A DNA stretch of 6,014 nt, from the NCBI GenBank assembly GCA_007136585.1, contig SLGR01000164.1, positions 1 through 6,014 of the forward strand. The letters run 5' to 3'. The notes under the pieces are model-generated. The model saw only the letters and a program-made list of their open reading frames with translations, searched no databases and was not told the DNA's origin. Made by a program: the position numbers and the translations under genes. Positions 1 to 6,014 of the stretch are shown here, piece by piece (the first letter of the stretch is position 1; every line of letters begins with the position of its first letter). The stretch is from Candidatus Sumerlaeota bacterium. Lineage in GTDB: Bacteria > CG03 > SLGR01.

Positions 1-1457
1 ATGATTGCGCCGATTCTGACGAGTTAAAGTACGCGAGCACCGTCCCTCTTGACGAGGTAGGGGACCCGGAAGAGGATGAGGTTGAGTTTGAGGGCGACCT
101 GGATGTTCTGGGATACACCTTCCAGTCCGGGGCCCGCGCTGCAGCGGCAGATTCGCAGAATAATATAATTGTCACCGGAAACTGCTGGGAAGAAGACGCT
201 ATCCTTACCGTAAAATACGATACGAACCTTAATGTGATATCCTCAACCACATATTCCGGGGAAGAGGGTGATGTTTCGGCCCATTCGGTGGCGGTGGACA
301 GCCAGGACAGGATAATAATAGCCGGCGCAAAATATATTGACGGAGACGACCATTTCTACATAAGGATATACGATTCTGAGTTTAACGTGGAGGCTTATCA
401 CTGGCACGCTGTTGACCGGGCGATGTATAGGACATATGTCGCAGTTGACAGCGAGGATAATATCATAATAACCGGGCGAGATGACGATGATTTTCTTACT
501 ATAAAGTATGACAGCAACCTTGAACAGATCGGTATTCCGGAGAGATATGAAGGTGTAGGGAGAGTTGACCAGCCTGCCGGGGTAGCGGTGGATTCAGATG
601 ATAATATCATTGTCTCGGGGTACAGCAGCGACCAGGATAACAATGCGGATTTCTTTACGATAAAATACTCTCCGTCGCTTACACAGATAACAAACAGGTC
701 CAATAACCTTGAGGAGGATAATTACGGGCGCGGAGTTGCCGTTACCCCGGATGACGAGATAGTCGTTACGGGGAGTATGGGAAATTCCATATTGACCCAG
801 AAGTACAACTCCGGTCTGACAGCGGTGCTGGGAGAGGATACATACGAGGATGAGGACGGAGCCTCTCCCCACGCGATAGCAGTTGATTCAGAAGGTAATA
901 TCGCGGTAACTGGAGACCATTATACTCCGACCCTTTGGTACAAGGGGTACCTGATGCTCTACAGCCCCGATTTTGAAATACTCGGATCCGTCACTTACTG
1001 GATGATCGGTGTTTACAGTAACTCTTCGTACGGTGTTGCCTTTGACCGTGATAACAACATAATAGCAATAGGGAGAGTTGCCGGCGATCGCGAGGTTGTC
1101 ATAAAGTTTGACGGGGTGGCGGCTCCTCAGCCAGGACCTGATCCCGATCCCGCCCCGGTTGAGGAAGAGGGTGAGGCGGAGGTCGTCGGAGGCTCAGGAG
1201 GGTCAGTAAACCCCAACGAGGGGGAGACGGCAAGGATACAGTTTAAGTCAAACCAGCCCGGGAGCGTAACGGTAAGGGTCTACAGCCGCCGCGGGCAGCT
1301 TGTCTGGGAAGATTCAAAGGAGACCGACGGCAGCGATGACGAGATAGAGTGGGCCGCGAGGAACGCCCAGGATAATGTGGTTTCCTCGGGTATATACATA
1401 ATACATATAAGTGGCCCTGGGATAGATGTCACCCGGCAGGTTCCGATAGTAAAATGA
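1..1457 (+). CDS. Secreted double beta-propeller protein with C-terminal sorting-type domain, 5'-partial (upstream paralog)
   Basis: The frame is open from base 3 to the TGA at 1455-1457, so the gene begins upstream of the window. The GTG at 234 falls inside a blade and is not the start. The first residues (DCADSDELKYA) match the end of the first propeller of the next gene (CGDSGALKHA), so a signal peptide and most of a first propeller should lie upstream. An acidic linker follows, then seven blades at 126-1118 with the core AVDSxDNIIVTG...TIKYDxxL, as in SBBP/delta-60-like repeats. A Pro/Asp linker (1119-1157), a Glu/Gly-rich stretch and a C-terminal Ig-like domain (about 1224-1454) complete the protein. 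No catalytic residues are recognisable; a surface binding, adhesion or structural role is inference. The last four bases form an ATGA overlap with the next gene. Coding status is very sure, the architecture fairly sure, the function unknown. Confidence 0.93.
   Translation, partial: DCADSDELKYASTVPLDEVGDPEEDEVEFEGDLDVLGYTFQSGARAAAADSQNNIIVTGNCWEEDAILTVKYDTNLNVISSTTYSGEEGDVSAHSVAVDSQDRIIIAGAKYIDGDDHFYIRIYDSEFNVEAYHWHAVDRAMYRTYVAVDSEDNIIITGRDDDDFLTIKYDSNLEQIGIPERYEGVGRVDQPAGVAVDSDDNIIVSGYSSDQDNNADFFTIKYSPSLTQITNRSNNLEEDNYGRGVAVTPDDEIVVTGSMGNSILTQKYNSGLTAVLGEDTYEDEDGASPHAIAVDSEGNIAVTGDHYTPTLWYKGYLMLYSPDFEILGSVTYWMIGVYSNSSYGVAFDRDNNIIAIGRVAGDREVVIKFDGVAAPQPGPDPDPAPVEEEGEAEVVGGSGGSVNPNEGETARIQFKSNQPGSVTVRVYSRRGQLVWEDSKETDGSDDEIEWAARNAQDNVVSSGIYIIHISGPGIDVTRQVPIVK
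126..1118 (+). repeat. Seven tandem propeller-blade repeats (DSxDNIIVTG type), first paralog
   Basis: Seven in-frame units of roughly 42-51 residues, each with a conserved core: ADSQNNIIVTG, VDSQDRIIIAG, VDSEDNIIITG, VDSDDNIIVSG, VTPDDEIVVTG, VDSEGNIAVTG and FDRDNNIIAIG. Each core is followed by a hydrophobic strand ending in KYD-like residues. The number and length suit a seven-bladed beta-propeller; the fold is inferred from the pattern. Confidence 0.85.
1155..1457 (+). repeat. 303-bp direct repeat, copy 1 (3' end of first paralog)
   Basis: This copy encodes the Glu/Gly linker and Ig-like C-terminal domain, including the stop codon. By eye it aligns without gaps to 3653-3955, with 14 base differences. 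Thirteen are synonymous; the other changes Arg (AGG) to Lys (AAG) at 'ETARIQF'. The final AAATGA also contains the start codon of the next gene. Confidence 0.97.
1454..1457 (+). other. ATGA stop/start overlap between the two paralogs
   Basis: The TGA of the first paralog (1455-1457) overlaps the ATG of the second (1454-1456). Only a weak purine stretch (GGCAGG, about 1435-1440) lies upstream, so translation by termination-reinitiation from the first gene is likely. The start lies inside the repeated cassette, so its initiation context is itself coding sequence for the sorting-type domain. Confidence 0.85.
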
Positions 1458-3955
1458 GGTTTAAGGCAGCTATAGTATTGGCGGCGGGGGTTTTACTTGC
1501 TCCGGATCCGGCTGGAGCCCTTCCTTTAGAGTGGAATATTGCGGAGATAGATACCCATACGTATGTTGATGACTGGGCTGACCGGTCCGAGATGGATATC
1601 GGCCCCGGCGACCTTCCGCATATAATATACGGAAACTACAGCGCGGGGATGCTCAGATACGCCGCCTATGACGGCGCGGGGTGGGATATTCACACGGTTA
1701 CAGATACTTTTTACTCTCCCGGTCTCTCACTTGCTCTTGATGGTGCCGGAGATACGCATCTGGCGGCAAACCTTACGGGCGAAGAGCTTTATTACGGGGT
1801 TTCCGGCACACCGTCCGGGTGGGAGTTCTCGGATCTTGCAGAAGGGGATTACCCCTCTATAACTCTGGACTCGCAGATGAGGCCCCATATAGCTTATTTC
1901 CAAACCGCCCGAGAACAGCTGGAGTACGCCGTTTATGATAACGGGTGGGAGTTTGATACAATTAAAGAAGATGTTATTATAAGGAGCCTGGCCCTTGTCC
2001 TTGATCAGCAAGATACCCCGCATCTGGCCTATTACAGAAGCAACAACGATGACCTTACAAAGGGACAGCTGGTTTATTCCTTCCCTGATAACGGCCAGTG
2101 GCAGGAGGAGGAGATAGACGTTTTAAGCGACGGTTTTTATTTTAACGGAGTTGACATAGCTGTAGGTGCCGATGGTAACGTTCATATAGTTTACCTGCAT
2201 TCGGGCAAGCTGAAGTACGCGGATATAGACCGGGGGTCGCAGGAGGTTATAGCGGACGACACCCAAATAGGGTCCTTTTCCGCTGCGGCCGGTGCGGAAA
2301 ATCTGGTGCGTGTTGCCTATACCTTCGCGCCCGACGGGTTTAACGGAAAAAAGGAGCTCTGGTATATGTCGGGCTCTTACGGAGACTGGAAGGATCCCGA
2401 ACGGGTAGAGTCAGAGTATGCCAGGCAGCCTTCGATCTCGGTAGATTCCGAGGGTATACCGCATATATCATACAGGTGCGGAGACTCCGGTGCGCTGAAG
2501 CACGCCGGCGGTTCTCCTCCTGAGGAGGAAGAGGATCCGCAGGATTATAACCTTGTCACTGAAGGAACCCTTGAGGATCTTGCGTGGGAAGTAAGCCAGA
2601 TTGAAAAAAATAACTCCGGATTATCCGTGGCTGTGAATTCTTCTGATGAGGTCATATTTCTTGATTCAAAGTGTGTTGACGGAGAGTTTAAACTTGTAAA
2701 ATATGACAGCAGCCTGGTGGTTATTTCCTCGGCTTCTTATAGCCAGGCGGGGTTTATCCGGGCCAGGGCCGTTACGGCAGACAGCCAGGATAATATAATC
2801 GTAGCCGGAGGGATAAGCCCCACAGCCGGGGACGATAGTAATTTCTTTATAATGAAATTTGGCCCGGATCTGACCCTTACCGGAAGTAAAGAGATTGATA
2901 CGCCTTTGTTTCACGCCGGAACCTCTCCGATGGACGGGGCATACGGCGCGGCAGTTGACAGCGGGGATAATATAATAGTAACCGGCATCCAGGATGAGAG
3001 TATCCGCACCTACAAATTCAACCCGAATCTGGATCTGCTGGATGATGCCGTCTATAACTCTGACACGATCAATTTAGGTAGGGGTGTGGCCGTTGACGGG
3101 GATGATAATATTTTTGTTGCCGGGACCGCGGGGGGCGACAGTTTTCTTACCATTAAATACAACCCGGATCTTATACGTCAGAATGTTACTGAGATAGATG
3201 CCGCTAACCAGACTCATCACTCAGGCGGAGCCATGGCGGTAGCAGTCAGCGGTGACGGAGATGTGGCGGTTACAGGAATAAGTGATGATGAGTGGCTGAT
3301 TGTAAAATATGATTCCGGGCTCACCGAGCAGGGAAGGGTTAGGAAAGAGAATTACGACCTCTCCGAAGGAAGGGGAGCCGCTTTTGATACGGCGGGCAAT
3401 CTCATAGTTTCCGGGTATATAGAGACCGGAGATATGTACGTTACTCAGTGGGGAAAGACCGTGCTTTATGATACTCAGTTTGCGGTCATATCCTCGGCTA
3501 CGTTCAGGGGTGATGGGTATTCCAATAAAGCAAACGCCATTGCCGTTTCCGGGGATAACAGTATATATGTCGCCGGGATGATTTTTGATGACTGGGAAGA
3601 CTCGGTTATCATAAAGTACAGTGGAGTCTCTCCCCCGGACCCCTCTCCCTCACCGGTTGAGGAAGAGGGTGAGGCGGAGGTCGTAGGAGGATCAGGGGGA
3701 TCAGTAAACCCCAACGAGGGGGAGACGGCAAAGATACAGTTTAAGTCAAATCAGCCCGGGAGCGTAACGGTAAGGGTCTACAGCCGCCGCGGGCAGCTTG
3801 TCTGGGAAGATTCAAAGGAGACCGACGGCAGTGATGACGAGATAGAGTGGGCTGCGAGGAACGCCCAGGATAACGTGGTTTCCTCGGGTATATACATAAT
3901 ACATATAAGTGGCCCGGGTATAGACGTTACCCGGCAGGTTCCGATAGTAAAGTGA
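1454..3955 (+). CDS. Secreted double seven-bladed beta-propeller protein with C-terminal FlgD-Ig/Por-secretion-tail-like domain
   Basis: This 833-residue protein starts at an ATG overlapping the previous stop. The start is supported by a signal peptide directly after it (MRFK, hydrophobic core 5-16, likely cleavage after AGA at 20-22). Residues about 24-352 contain seven repeats with the core LALDxxGxPHIAYY...LxYAxxxxxxW. An acidic linker (about 353-387) follows. Residues 388-725 hold seven repeats of a different type, AVDxxDNIIVTG...TIKYxPDL. A Pro-rich then Glu/Gly-rich linker (726-756) leads to an Ig-like domain (757-833) with the pattern NPN...IQF...VTVRVYSRRGQLV...SSGIYIIHI...VPIVK. That pattern fits FlgD-Ig and type IX sorting domains. 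Seven repeats suggest two closed seven-bladed propellers (inference). No enzyme active site is seen. The ligand is unknown; adhesion, glycan binding or surface-layer roles are possible. The downstream PorV-like gene suggests outer-membrane export. Confidence 0.95.
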   Translation: MRFKAAIVLAAGVLLAPDPAGALPLEWNIAEIDTHTYVDDWADRSEMDIGPGDLPHIIYGNYSAGMLRYAAYDGAGWDIHTVTDTFYSPGLSLALDGAGDTHLAANLTGEELYYGVSGTPSGWEFSDLAEGDYPSITLDSQMRPHIAYFQTAREQLEYAVYDNGWEFDTIKEDVIIRSLALVLDQQDTPHLAYYRSNNDDLTKGQLVYSFPDNGQWQEEEIDVLSDGFYFNGVDIAVGADGNVHIVYLHSGKLKYADIDRGSQEVIADDTQIGSFSAAAGAENLVRVAYTFAPDGFNGKKELWYMSGSYGDWKDPERVESEYARQPSISVDSEGIPHISYRCGDSGALKHAGGSPPEEEEDPQDYNLVTEGTLEDLAWEVSQIEKNNSGLSVAVNSSDEVIFLDSKCVDGEFKLVKYDSSLVVISSASYSQAGFIRARAVTADSQDNIIVAGGISPTAGDDSNFFIMKFGPDLTLTGSKEIDTPLFHAGTSPMDGAYGAAVDSGDNIIVTGIQDESIRTYKFNPNLDLLDDAVYNSDTINLGRGVAVDGDDNIFVAGTAGGDSFLTIKYNPDLIRQNVTEIDAANQTHHSGGAMAVAVSGDGDVAVTGISDDEWLIVKYDSGLTEQGRVRKENYDLSEGRGAAFDTAGNLIVSGYIETGDMYVTQWGKTVLYDTQFAVISSATFRGDGYSNKANAIAVSGDNSIYVAGMIFDDWEDSVIIKYSGVSPPDPSPSPVEEEGEAEVVGGSGGSVNPNEGETAKIQFKSNQPGSVTVRVYSRRGQLVWEDSKETDGSDDEIEWAARNAQDNVVSSGIYIIHISGPGIDVTRQVPIVK
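1523..2509 (+). repeat. Seven tandem propeller-blade repeats (PHIAY type), N-terminal domain of second paralog
   Basis: Seven units carry cores LPHIIYG, DTHLAAN, RPHIAYF, TPHLAYY, NVHIVYL, LVRVAYT and IPHISYR, most followed by LxYA-like strands and a Trp. They are a different repeat family from the second propeller of the same protein. The first residues after the signal peptide (LEWNIAEID) could supply the strand closing the last blade, as in velcro-closed propellers; that closure is inference. Confidence 0.8.
2615..3628 (+). repeat. Seven tandem propeller-blade repeats (DSxDNIIVTG type), second paralog
   Basis: Seven units with cores VNSSDEVIFLD, ADSQDNIIVAG, VDSGDNIIVTG, VDGDDNIFVAG, VSGDGDVAVTG, FDTAGNLIVSG and VSGDNSIYVAG, most followed by a K(Y/F)-containing strand. 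The count equals that of the first paralog, and the last unit likewise ends K(Y/F)xGV before the linker. The units correspond in order but differ clearly in sequence. Confidence 0.85.
3653..3955 (+). repeat. 303-bp direct repeat, copy 2 (3' end of second paralog)
   Basis: Second copy of the C-terminal cassette, exactly 2498 bases downstream of the first. It ends AAGTGA instead of AAATGA, so the overlapping ATG of copy 1 is absent here. Immediately 5' of the repeat the Pro-rich linkers of the two genes differ, so the near-identity has a sharp left border. Confidence 0.97.
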
Positions 3956-3973
3956 TTTTTTAAAAGGTATAGC

Positions 3974-3980
3974 AAGGGAG
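3974..3980 (+). promoter_or_regulatory. Strong Shine-Dalgarno site of the PorV-like gene
   Basis: AAGGGAG followed by six A residues before the ATG at 3987. It is the clearest ribosome binding site in the window and decides the start of the PorV-like protein in favour of the first ATG. Confidence 0.8.
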
Positions 3981-3986
3981 AAAAAA

Positions 3987-4904
3987 ATGATTAAGGTTAT
4001 GAGAAAATTTGCGGTATCGGTTATGATCTTTTCGGCGGTTTCCGCCTGCGCCTACGCGGGGGGCGCCGGATCTACGGCGGTCCTTACCCTGCTTGAGCCG
4101 GTCTCCGGGGCGGACGCGGCAATGGGTGAGGCGGGTGTGGCCCTGAGCGGTTCGCCTTCTATGCTCAGGTATAACCCGGCGGGGATAATATCCTCCGGTC
4201 CCGGGAGGGCCGGGTTCCTCTACAGGAGGGGTCTGGCGGATGACAGCTACTTTGCCCTTACCGCTTCCCTCGGCGGAGGGGATATAACATACGCGGCCTC
4301 CGTGCAGTACTATACCACGGGGGAGATAACTCTCTTTAACCTTGCCGGACAGGAGGTAACCGAAGTGGGTCAGAGGGATACAGTTTTCAACTTAGGGGCC
4401 GCTACTGAGATAGGCGGTATACCCGCGGGCGTTAACCTGAAATACATAACCTCGGAGATATTCGGCGAGGACGGTTCGGCTTTCGCGGCCGACCTGGGTA
4501 TGCAGTATAAAGAGTTTGAGGGGATGACCCTGGGCCTTGCGGTAAGGAACCTCGGGACCGGGATAGAGTACGTCAGCGATGAGGAGGACCTTCCCCTTAA
4601 CGTGGCGGCGGGGGCTTCCTACTCCGGCGATCATTACGGTGGCGATCTTCTGCTTTCGATGGAGGTTCCCTACTTTGTAAACGAGAAGGAAACGCTTATT
4701 CTGGCGGGAGCCGAGTTTATTTATAACGGGATGCTTGCCTTAAGGGGCGGGTACAGGGTTAACCTTGACGATACATCCGGCGAGGATGTGCCCGTGACGC
4801 TGGGGGTTGGTATAATATGGAACAACTACCTTATTGATTACGGGGTTGGCCTTGCAAGCGACCTCAGCTCCCCTCATAACATATCCGTAACCCTGCTCTA
4901 CTGA
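3987..4904 (+). CDS. PorV/PorQ-family (UPF0164-like) outer-membrane beta-barrel protein
   Basis: This 305-residue protein has a strong ribosome binding site (AAGGGAG, 3974-3980) six bases before its ATG; the in-frame ATG at 3999 lacks comparable spacing. A signal peptide ends near AYA-G (residues 22-25). The mature N-terminus carries the family hallmark: GADAAMGEAGVALSGSPSML followed by RYNPAGI (about residues 42-67). The rest is Gly-rich alternating beta sequence with motifs such as GVNLKYI and LGLAVRNLGTGIEY, and it ends in LLY. A terminal aromatic residue is typical of outer-membrane barrels. In the known family, PorV of type IX secretion binds C-terminal sorting domains and passes cargo to the attachment complex, and PorQ is related. 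Lying 31 bases behind two genes that end in sorting-like domains fits a cargo-shuttle role, but that role is inference; other family members have no known function. VSAC at 18-21 also resembles a lipobox. Confidence 0.88.
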   Translation: MIKVMRKFAVSVMIFSAVSACAYAGGAGSTAVLTLLEPVSGADAAMGEAGVALSGSPSMLRYNPAGIISSGPGRAGFLYRRGLADDSYFALTASLGGGDITYAASVQYYTTGEITLFNLAGQEVTEVGQRDTVFNLGAATEIGGIPAGVNLKYITSEIFGEDGSAFAADLGMQYKEFEGMTLGLAVRNLGTGIEYVSDEEDLPLNVAAGASYSGDHYGGDLLLSMEVPYFVNEKETLILAGAEFIYNGMLALRGGYRVNLDDTSGEDVPVTLGVGIIWNNYLIDYGVGLASDLSSPHNISVTLLY

Positions 4905-4920
4905 AACAGGTAAAAAAACC

Positions 4921-5598
4921 GTGAATTCTCCTGCGGCTGTAGTAAAGATAGGCGGCAGCGTTATAAGAAGCCCCGAAGCCCTTAAAGGGGTTCTTGCCCG
5001 GATAATAAGTTTATCCCGGAAGGGATACGGGGTTACAGTCATACCAGGTGGAGGGGAAGCGGCGGAGCTTGTAAGGAAGAAACAGGAAACCTTATCTCTT
5101 TCCGATACCGCGGCTCACTGGATGGCCGTAAGGGCTATGGATATAAACGGGGTTCTCATATCCGATCTTAACAGCGGTTTTACAATAGCTGAGGATATCT
5201 CTTCCTGCAGAGCCGCGCTTGAGGAAAAGAAGGTCCCTGTTTTCCTCTCATCTTCCTTCCTCAGGCAGGAGGGAAAACTTCCCGAATCCTGGGATGTGAC
5301 CTCCGACTCAATATCACTTTTTATAGCCTCTAAGCTGGGCGTTTCAAGGCTTGTACTTGTAAAGGATGTGGAAGGTGTATACCCAGGTGACGGCGCCCCG
5401 GAAATTATTGAAACCCTCACCCCGGAAGACCTTCGGGAGATCCGGAGGAAAACTTCCAGTGGATGCGTGGACCGGTATTTCCCTTCACTGGCCTCAGAGA
5501 CCGGAATAAGTACCTGTATCGTGTCGGGGTATCATCCGGGCCGGGTTGAAGATGCCGTTACGGGTAGGGATTTCGAGGGGACCCTGGTAAGGACTTAA
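4921..5598 (+). CDS. Amino-acid-kinase-fold small-molecule kinase, MfnE-like
   Basis: This 225-residue protein starts at a GTG 16 bases after the previous stop, with a weak CAGG (4907-4910) ahead. The start places the glycine-rich strand VVKIGGS at residues 7-13, as expected for the fold. Further motifs are IPGGG (41-45), SDTAAHWMAVRAMD (61-74), WDVTSDS (124-130), LVLVKDVEGVYP (144-155), GCVDRYFP (181-188) and a final GTLV (220-223). The AHWMA and WDVTSDS signatures recall MfnE, [5-(aminomethyl)furan-3-yl]methyl phosphate kinase of methanofuran synthesis in methanogens and C1-metabolising bacteria. The length also fits. The fold is shared with uridylate, acetylglutamate, glutamate and isopentenyl phosphate kinases. 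An isopentenyl-phosphate-like substrate should be kept open because a UbiA-like gene follows. Fold assignment is confident and ATP-dependent phosphoryl transfer likely; the substrate is inference. The protein lacks a signal peptide and should be cytoplasmic. Confidence 0.88.
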   Translation: MNSPAAVVKIGGSVIRSPEALKGVLARIISLSRKGYGVTVIPGGGEAAELVRKKQETLSLSDTAAHWMAVRAMDINGVLISDLNSGFTIAEDISSCRAALEEKKVPVFLSSSFLRQEGKLPESWDVTSDSISLFIASKLGVSRLVLVKDVEGVYPGDGAPEIIETLTPEDLREIRRKTSSGCVDRYFPSLASETGISTCIVSGYHPGRVEDAVTGRDFEGTLVRT

Positions 5599-5607
5599 GT
5601 AAAACAG

Positions 5608-6014
5608 TTGAACTATTACCGGTTTTACAGGCTTGATTTCTGTTTAAGGAACCTCGGACTCGGTCTTATGGCCCTGCTTACCCTGGAAGCCTTGCCGGGA
5701 ATTTACCCCGCATCCCTTGCGATTTTTCAGATACTTTTGATCCAGATGCAGTCTTTCTCCGCCAATAACTACTTTGACAGTCTTATCTGGGGAGAGGAAA
5801 ACTATATCAGTGAACTTGTAAGAGAAGGAGTAGGCGGTAAACGGATCGTCTTTCTGCTTTTTTTGCCGGTAATTCTTCTTATTATGACACTGCCGTTTTC
5901 TGATAAGTCTTTTCTGCTTCTTATCCTGTATATGTTACTTTTCTCGCTTTACCAGCTTCCTGGTGTGAGAAAGGTATTTAAGGAACATTACCTGCCCTCA
6001 ATAATAATCAACTC
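5608..6014 (+). CDS. UbiA-like integral-membrane prenyltransferase homolog, 3'-partial
   Basis: The frame opens directly after the kinase stop and runs off the window, giving 135 codons. I chose the TTG at 5608 because the residues after it (NYYRFYRLDF) look like the polar start of a UbiA-type protein. The next candidate is ATG at 5668, inside the first hydrophobic helix. AAGGA at 5589-5593 is a possible but distant ribosome binding site. Hydrophobic segments lie near residues 16-29, 35-50, 80-97 and 101-115. SANNYFDSLIWGEEN (51-65) sits where UbiA enzymes carry the first Asp-rich motif NDxxDxxxD, but the third acidic position is Trp61. YQLPGVRKV (115-123) resembles the YSxPPxRLK motif that follows. 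The family moves a prenyl group onto an acceptor in quinone, lipid or sugar-lipid synthesis. The second Asp-rich motif lies outside the window, so activity cannot be judged. Coding is likely; the family call is moderate. Confidence 0.7.
   Translation, partial: MNYYRFYRLDFCLRNLGLGLMALLTLEALPGIYPASLAIFQILLIQMQSFSANNYFDSLIWGEENYISELVREGVGGKRIVFLLFLPVILLIMTLPFSDKSFLLLILYMLLFSLYQLPGVRKVFKEHYLPSIIIN

What the first reader, a model, noticed from the sequence alone, without database searches (positions are those of the whole stretch)
1155..4904. Cargo-plus-shuttle block: two sorting-domain proteins followed by a PorV-like barrel
In type IX secretion, PorV binds the C-terminal domains of cargo. Here two proteins ending in a Por-tail/FlgD-Ig-like domain lie 31 bases upstream of a PorV/PorQ-family gene. 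If the organism lies outside Bacteroidota, this could be a dedicated type IX-like export and display unit with its own shuttle. The window shows only the block; translocon genes are not present.
Basis: partly seen in the sequence, partly recalled or inferred. Interest (0 to 1): 0.6.

Follow-up and report, generated by a model that had tools for sequence, protein, structure and literature searches.

The report
Cargo proteins paired with dedicated PorV barrels
An uncultured Elusimicrobia-type bacterium appears to send proteins to its surface by a cousin of the Bacteroidota type IX secretion system, but where Bacteroidota share one carrier barrel among dozens of such cargos, this lineage encodes a matching barrel right behind almost every cargo gene.

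Summary
Two proteins with type A sorting tails (TIGR04183, above cut-off) lie in one operon with a PorV/PorQ-family barrel (NF033709, 122 bits, cut-off 90); the gaps are -4 and +31 nt. The genome is a MAG whose nearest named SprA relatives are deposited as Elusimicrobia, a phylum for which the held literature reports no T9SS. It encodes a 1,727-aa SprA homologue and about 30 PorV-family barrels; 27 of 30 have a sorting-tail gene directly upstream. Barrels and tails evolve together (r = 0.58 across 26 pairs in this genome, 0.69 across 91 pairs in the phylum; no permutation reached either). The signal concentrates in barrel loops L1 and L2, which touch the substrate tail in the F. johnsoniae cryo-EM structure. 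No C25/PorU sortase was found in this order, and PorKLMN were not detected, although the motor searches had no working positive control. Some barrels carry OmpA or LysM domains. Most likely this is a SprA-dependent, type IX-like export and display system with one dedicated PorV-type carrier per cargo operon, the carrier probably staying on as anchor. In Bacteroidota that logic is known only for type B tails with PorP/SprF. A new variant; retention and motor are unproven.

The parts
3..1457 (+). Cargo 1: delta-60/SBBP/NHL-type repeat protein ending in a type A-like sorting tail; 5' end missing (contig start)
   Evidence: ORF; TIGR02608 and TIGR04183; NHL and SBBP
1137..1454 (+). C-terminal sorting domain of cargo 1, including the 300-nt direct repeat
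   Evidence: repeat D1; 15 silent and 5 replacement differences over 106 codons, all but one replacement codon in the linker
1454..3955 (+). Cargo 2: N-terminal signal-peptide-like stretch, BNR-like region, delta-60/SBBP repeats and a type A-like sorting tail
   Evidence: ORF; TIGR02608 and TIGR04183; BNR_4 and SBBP weak; signal peptide read by eye
3635..3952 (+). C-terminal sorting domain of cargo 2; predicted seven-strand Ig-like sandwich
   Evidence: AlphaFold2 pLDDT 92.8; best PDB match is the PorZ structure 5m11, with PorU 6za2 also matched
3987..4904 (+). PorV/PorQ-family outer-membrane barrel, proposed dedicated carrier and anchor of both cargos; N-terminal signal-peptide-like helix, hatch helices, about 14 strands
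   Evidence: NF033709 122 bits; AlphaFold2 pLDDT 91.8; PDB PorV 8gl6_F and 6h3i_F, TM 0.75-0.78
4218..4256 (+). Barrel loop L1 (residues 78-90), co-varies with the tails
   Evidence: partial r 0.28; aligns with the loop holding F. johnsoniae PorV Asn87
4305..4382 (+). Barrel loop L2 (residues 107-132), co-varies with the tails
   Evidence: partial r 0.27; aligns with the loop holding F. johnsoniae PorV Phe115

Best explanation
The block is one cargo-carrier operon of a SprA-dependent, type IX-like export system outside Bacteroidota. Two repeat (propeller-type) proteins enter the periplasm by Sec. [quoted passage not shown] Unlike the single general PorV of Bacteroidota, each cargo operon here has its own barrel, matched to its tail. 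Because no PorU/C25 sortase was found in this order, the barrel probably stays bound and anchors the cargo, as PorP/SprF barrels do for type B tails. Shown by sequence: component homology, SprA in the genome, pairing, and co-variation localised to the contact loops. Inferred: secretion, pair specificity, retention as anchor, energy source.
For: PorV-family, tail and SprA identities are supported by HMM, PDB profile search and, for barrel and tail, fold search. In this genome 27 of 30 barrels have a tail gene directly upstream, 25 of them within 60 nt and many with a 4-nt overlap. Tail and barrel distance matrices correlate: r 0.58 in G000 and 0.69 in the phylum; 0 of 2000 shuffles reach either, including within-genome shuffles. 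Extracellular loops carry the signal (partial r 0.62 given the periplasmic turns) far more than periplasmic turns (0.25); L1+L2 beat all 500 phylum and all 2000 G000 shuffles. These two loops align with PorV Asn87 and Phe115, which contact the tail in the cryo-EM structure (PMC10994853). Tail-to-barrel counts are 0.4-1.2 in all 16 phylum genomes against 2.7-6.7 in four PorU-bearing genomes. C25 peptidase is 0 in all eight genomes of the order. Some barrels carry OmpA or LysM domains. The two window tails are 99% identical in protein with 13 silent changes in the domain, as expected if both are read by one barrel.
Against: No experiment exists. PorKLMN were not detected, so the energy source is unknown. 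SprA falls just under the TIGR04189 cut-off (182 against 200 bits). Nine of 35 tail genes in the fetched G000 contigs have no barrel directly downstream (one is cargo 1, which shares its barrel), so some barrels must serve several cargos or act in trans. Pairing is also common in sampled PorU-bearing genomes (10 of 16), so pairing alone does not prove retention. Five genomes of another family in the phylum do have a C25 peptidase. Co-duplication of pairs as units explains part of the correlation.
Confidence: 0.68

Rival explanations
1. A full conventional type IX system: divergent PorKLMN and an unrelated sortase exist but escape the HMMs, carriers recycle, and the paired genes are only convenient operons.
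For: SprA, PorV-family and type A tails are all present. GldL and GldN HMMs rang in no genome and GldM gave only a stray hit in Thermotoga, so no search had a true positive control. The proteins are divergent enough for motor parts to be missed. C25 peptidases occur in five genomes of the phylum.
Against: About 30 barrels for roughly 35 tails, where recycling would need one; L1/L2 co-variation with the partner tail; no C25 in eight genomes of the order; barrels carrying peptidoglycan-binding domains.
Confidence: 0.2
2. The barrels are FadL-type transporters or porins, and the Ig-like tails are passive FlgD-like domains; they share operons for another reason.
For: The barrel fold is FadL-type (TodX TM 0.63-0.68); the tails also resemble FlgD.
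Against: PorV is far the best PDB profile match (6e-39 against 1e-7 for TodX); tails match PorZ, PorU and the substrate tails of the PorV-SprA complex (8glk_D, 8glj_D); SprA is present; loop-specific co-variation.
Confidence: 0.05
3. A SprA-independent two-partner display system: the barrel alone exports or holds the cargo, and SprA does another job.
For: One barrel per cargo resembles two-partner logic; SprA is encoded on another contig, away from the pairs.
Against: PorV-family barrels have no pore able to pass a folded protein in known structures (established knowledge); SprA is found in 15 of the 16 phylum genomes, all of which have barrels. The exception, G015, is 63% complete.
Confidence: 0.05

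Closest known systems
Type B CTD substrates with dedicated PorP/SprF carriers (Flavobacterium SprB/SprF, Porphyromonas PG1035/PorP)
   Same: Carrier gene commonly directly downstream of its cargo; one dedicated FadL-family barrel per cargo; carrier stays bound and anchors (PMC12618676, PMC9143113, PMC12635249).
   Different: Here the tails are type A-like (TIGR04183) and the carriers are PorV-family; the window barrel has no PorP/SprF hit.
Type A CTD substrates with the general carrier PorV (F. johnsoniae, P. gingivalis)
   Same: Same tail fold, same barrel family, SprA homologue, contact loops align.
   Different: In Bacteroidota one PorV serves all type A cargo and PorU or release follows (PMC12618676, PMC12635249); here about 30 barrels, almost all paired, and no PorU/C25 detected in the order.
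   Same: Several PorV-family copies, and 10 of 16 sampled copies have a tail gene directly upstream.
   Different: PorU above cut-off and 2.7-6.7 tails per barrel, against 0.4-1.2 here.

Membership tests
Type IX secretion system (canonical) | SprA/Sov translocon | tested here: met
   1,727-aa ORF at G000:C230; TIGR04189 182 bits in five stretches, under the equivalog cut-off of 200; only credible PDB hit is SprA 6h3i, E 4e-22. Met as homologue, not as equivalog by cut-off
Type IX secretion system (canonical) | Type A sorting tail (TIGR04183) on Sec-exported cargo | tested here: met
   25.5 and 25.0 bits, cut-off 23; seven-strand fold; signal peptide of cargo 2 judged by eye
Type IX secretion system (canonical) | PorKLMN ring and motor | tested here: inconclusive
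   GldL, GldM, GldN zero in 31 genomes and GldK zero in G000 with none over cut-off anywhere; no true positive control rang; MAG 88% complete
Type IX secretion system (canonical) | PorU C25 sortase | tested here: not met
   PF01364 zero in G000 and all seven order relatives; NF033707 hits listed for G000 cover the tail only
PorV equivalog (NF033710) | Score over the equivalog cut-off of 250 bits | tested here: not met
   64 bits
PorV/PorQ family (NF033709) | Score over 90 bits and a PorV-like fold | tested here: met
   122 bits; TM 0.75-0.78 to PorV
Type B CTD / PorP-SprF pair | TIGR04131 tail and PorP/SprF barrel | tested here: not met
   TIGR04131 and PorP/SprF are not among the hits at E<=1 for the window proteins; only the weaker CHU_C Pfam model (below cut-off) touches the tails
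Type B CTD / PorP-SprF pair | Dedicated carrier directly downstream that retains its cargo | tested here: inconclusive
   Genetic pairing met; retention not testable with these tools

The most novel reading that the evidence does not exclude
A reduced type IX-like system, without PorKLMN motor or sortase, in which every carrier is used once: barrel and cargo leave SprA together and the barrel, sometimes tied to peptidoglycan by its own OmpA or LysM domain, is a permanent stoichiometric anchor. Export would then be driven by something other than the known rotary motor.
Probability: 0.25. Interest if true: 0.82.

Novelty: new variant of a known kind. Interest (0 to 1): 0.62.

Why it matters
Reviews place the type IX system only in Bacteroidota or its FCB relatives and state that its genes are absent from other phyla (PMC11285876, PMC12618676). 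Here SprA, PorV-family barrels and sorting tails occur together across Elusimicrobia-type genomes. Natural one-to-one pairs of tail and carrier, about 30 in one genome and about 100 in the sampled genomes, turn the open question of how a carrier recognises its tail into a testable comparison of cognate and non-cognate partners, and they give a natural case in which to ask whether PorKLMN and PorU are dispensable.

Tried and rejected
PorV-cargo fusion in G003 (L194, 962 aa): the upstream half is masked N, so it is an artefact and was excluded. A positive control for GldM in the phylum of G024: 60 genomes, none rang, so motor absence stays inconclusive. A first pairing script read wrong HMM columns and reported almost no pairs; corrected. 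The idea that the tail-to-barrel ratio tracks C25 presence inside the phylum: C25-bearing family f5 has similar ratios (0.6-0.9), so the contrast holds only against the PorU-bearing outgroups. A motor gene near SprA: the conserved neighbours are ComF-like and LptF/G-like genes, no motor seen.

Full report
What is in the window. The window is the whole of contig C204 (6,014 bases) of a MAG of 1.88 Mb in 257 contigs, 88% complete with 1.6% contamination. It holds cargo 1 (3-1457, cut at the contig start), cargo 2 (1454-3955), a barrel (3987-4904), an amino-acid-kinase-family gene (4921-5598) and the start of a possible prenyltransferase gene (5608-). Both cargo tails exceed the TIGR04183 cut-off. 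The barrel exceeds the PorV/PorQ family cut-off but not those of the PorV or PorQ equivalogs.

Structures. A profile of 58 barrels finds F. johnsoniae PorV (6h3i_F) in the PDB at E 6e-39, with TodX next at 1e-7. The AlphaFold2 model (pLDDT 91.8) matches PorV 8gl6_F and 6h3i_F best (TM 0.75-0.78). A profile of 68 tails finds PorZ, PorU and the substrate tails trapped on the PorV-SprA complex (8glk_D, 8glj_D). The tail model (pLDDT 92.8) has seven strands, as in known type A tails (PMC11285876), and its top PDB match is the PorZ structure 5m11.

Organism and translocon. SprA is encoded on contig C230 (1,727 aa): TIGR04189 182 bits in five stretches, a little under the cut-off of 200. The only credible PDB match of the SprA profile is SprA itself, E 4e-22. 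Fifteen of the 16 phylum genomes have it. A scan of reference genomes confirmed 177 relatives, and of the best 80 nearly all named records are Elusimicrobia. Literature searches of the held library found no description of a type IX system in this group; one review states that its genes are absent outside the FCB phyla (PMC11285876).

Pairing. The genome has about 30 PorV-family barrels (31 by NF033709). With an HMM built from this genome, 27 of 30 have a tail gene directly upstream on the same strand, 25 of them within 60 nt. Of the 24 barrels found by similarity to the window barrel alone, 22 are paired, so the result does not depend on a tail search. In relatives of the same order 45 of 53 sampled barrels with readable upstream sequence are paired, in the rest of the phylum 20 of 35, and in four PorU-bearing genomes of other phyla 10 of 16 (the relatives were sampled from the best-scoring barrels, and the tail HMM was built from G000, so pairing in distant genomes may be undercounted). 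In the fetched G000 contigs 26 of 35 tail genes have a barrel directly downstream; of the other nine one is cargo 1, which shares the barrel of cargo 2.

Co-evolution. Distances among tails and among their barrels correlate: r 0.58 for 26 pairs in this genome and 0.69 for 91 pairs in the phylum. No permutation of 2000 reached these values, including shuffles kept within genomes; leaving out close orthologues r is 0.51. Pairs duplicating as units would give part of this. The finer test asks where in the barrel the signal lies. Extracellular loops keep a partial r of 0.62 after controlling for periplasmic turns, while the turns keep 0.25 after controlling for the loops. Single loops L1 and L2 stand highest (0.28, 0.27). 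L1 and L2 together, controlling for the rest of the barrel, give 0.39 in the phylum (0 of 500 shuffles) and 0.32 in G000 alone (0 of 2000). Asn87 and Phe115 of F. johnsoniae PorV, whose backbone contacts the conserved tail lysine in the cryo-EM structure (PMC10994853), align to exactly these two loops. The loop assignment comes from the strand order of the predicted model and the usual topology of outer-membrane barrels.

The two tails of the window. They are a 300-nt duplication (94% identical). Within the domain there is one conservative replacement (R/K) and 13 silent changes; over 106 codons dN/dS is about 0.09. Upstream of the repeat the two genes do not align. A tail was copied as a module and then held constant in protein, as expected if both must fit the same barrel. 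The nearest paralogous unit (contig C49) and units in G001 and G003 are nearest in both partners (barrels 41-44%, tails 43-52%).

Sortase, motor and anchoring. No C25 peptidase was found in this genome or its seven order relatives, whereas five of eight genomes elsewhere in the phylum have one. PorU HMM hits listed for G000 cover only the tail. GldL, GldM, GldN were found nowhere in 31 genomes and GldK not in G000; because no true positive control rang, this is non-detection, not absence. Tail-to-barrel counts are 0.4-1.2 in the phylum and 2.7-6.7 in four PorU-bearing genomes. TIGR04183 may undercount the tails of this phylum. Several barrels carry C-terminal OmpA, LysM, TPR or CsgG/LpoB-like domains. 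A carrier tied to peptidoglycan is easier to understand as an anchor than as a shuttle.

Cargo range. Paired cargos include a subtilase, a PLD-like enzyme, carbohydrate-binding modules, FG-GAP and Kelch-like propellers, Fn3 and Big domains, that is, typical surface proteins and enzymes.

Reading. In Bacteroidota, type A tails use the one general PorV and then PorU or release, whereas type B tails each have a dedicated PorP/SprF carrier that remains as the anchor (PMC12635249, PMC12618676, PMC9143113). The window combines the parts of the first with the gene logic of the second. I call it a new variant of a type IX-like system. It should not be filed as a canonical T9SS, because the sortase was tested and not found and the motor could not be established. 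Secretion, retention and energy source are inferences that need the experiments listed.

Noticed in passing
L055:4532-6313, L180:4918-6297, L221:1967-3982; L045:3962-5245; L048:13624-15501; L066, L051: PorV-family barrels with C-terminal periplasmic extensions: OmpA (three members), LysM, TPR; CsgG/FlgO/LpoB-like domains in some relatives.
   Followed up: partly
L037:10801-17676 and SprA loci L098-L177: In Elusimicrobia-type genomes sprA is repeatedly found near a comF-like gene (43 of 80 loci) and lptF/lptG-like genes (51 of 80), unlike any T9SS locus known to me.
   Followed up: partly
window 4921-5598 and 5608-6014: Amino-acid-kinase-family protein resembling MfnE (124 bits, cut-off 300) 16 nt after the barrel, followed by a weakly prenyltransferase-like gene; possibly the same transcript, relation unknown.
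   Followed up: no
window 3935-3952: The near-invariant Lys at the sixth position from the tail end (K in 71 and R in 12 of 92 paired tails) is Gln in both window tails, with Arg just before it.
   Followed up: partly
G008, G009, G010, G012, G014: Each has one C25 caspase-like peptidase (ORFs of 467-809 aa, some possibly cut by contig ends), far below the PorU cut-off; role unknown.
   Followed up: no
L039:7323-10039: One of the few unpaired barrels is followed directly by a second barrel-TPR protein; may be a core component and not a cargo carrier.
   Followed up: no
L101, L109, L169: SprA loci filed as Caldiserica, Clostridia and Aerophobetes; probably misnamed or misbinned records, or wider spread of the system.
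   Followed up: no
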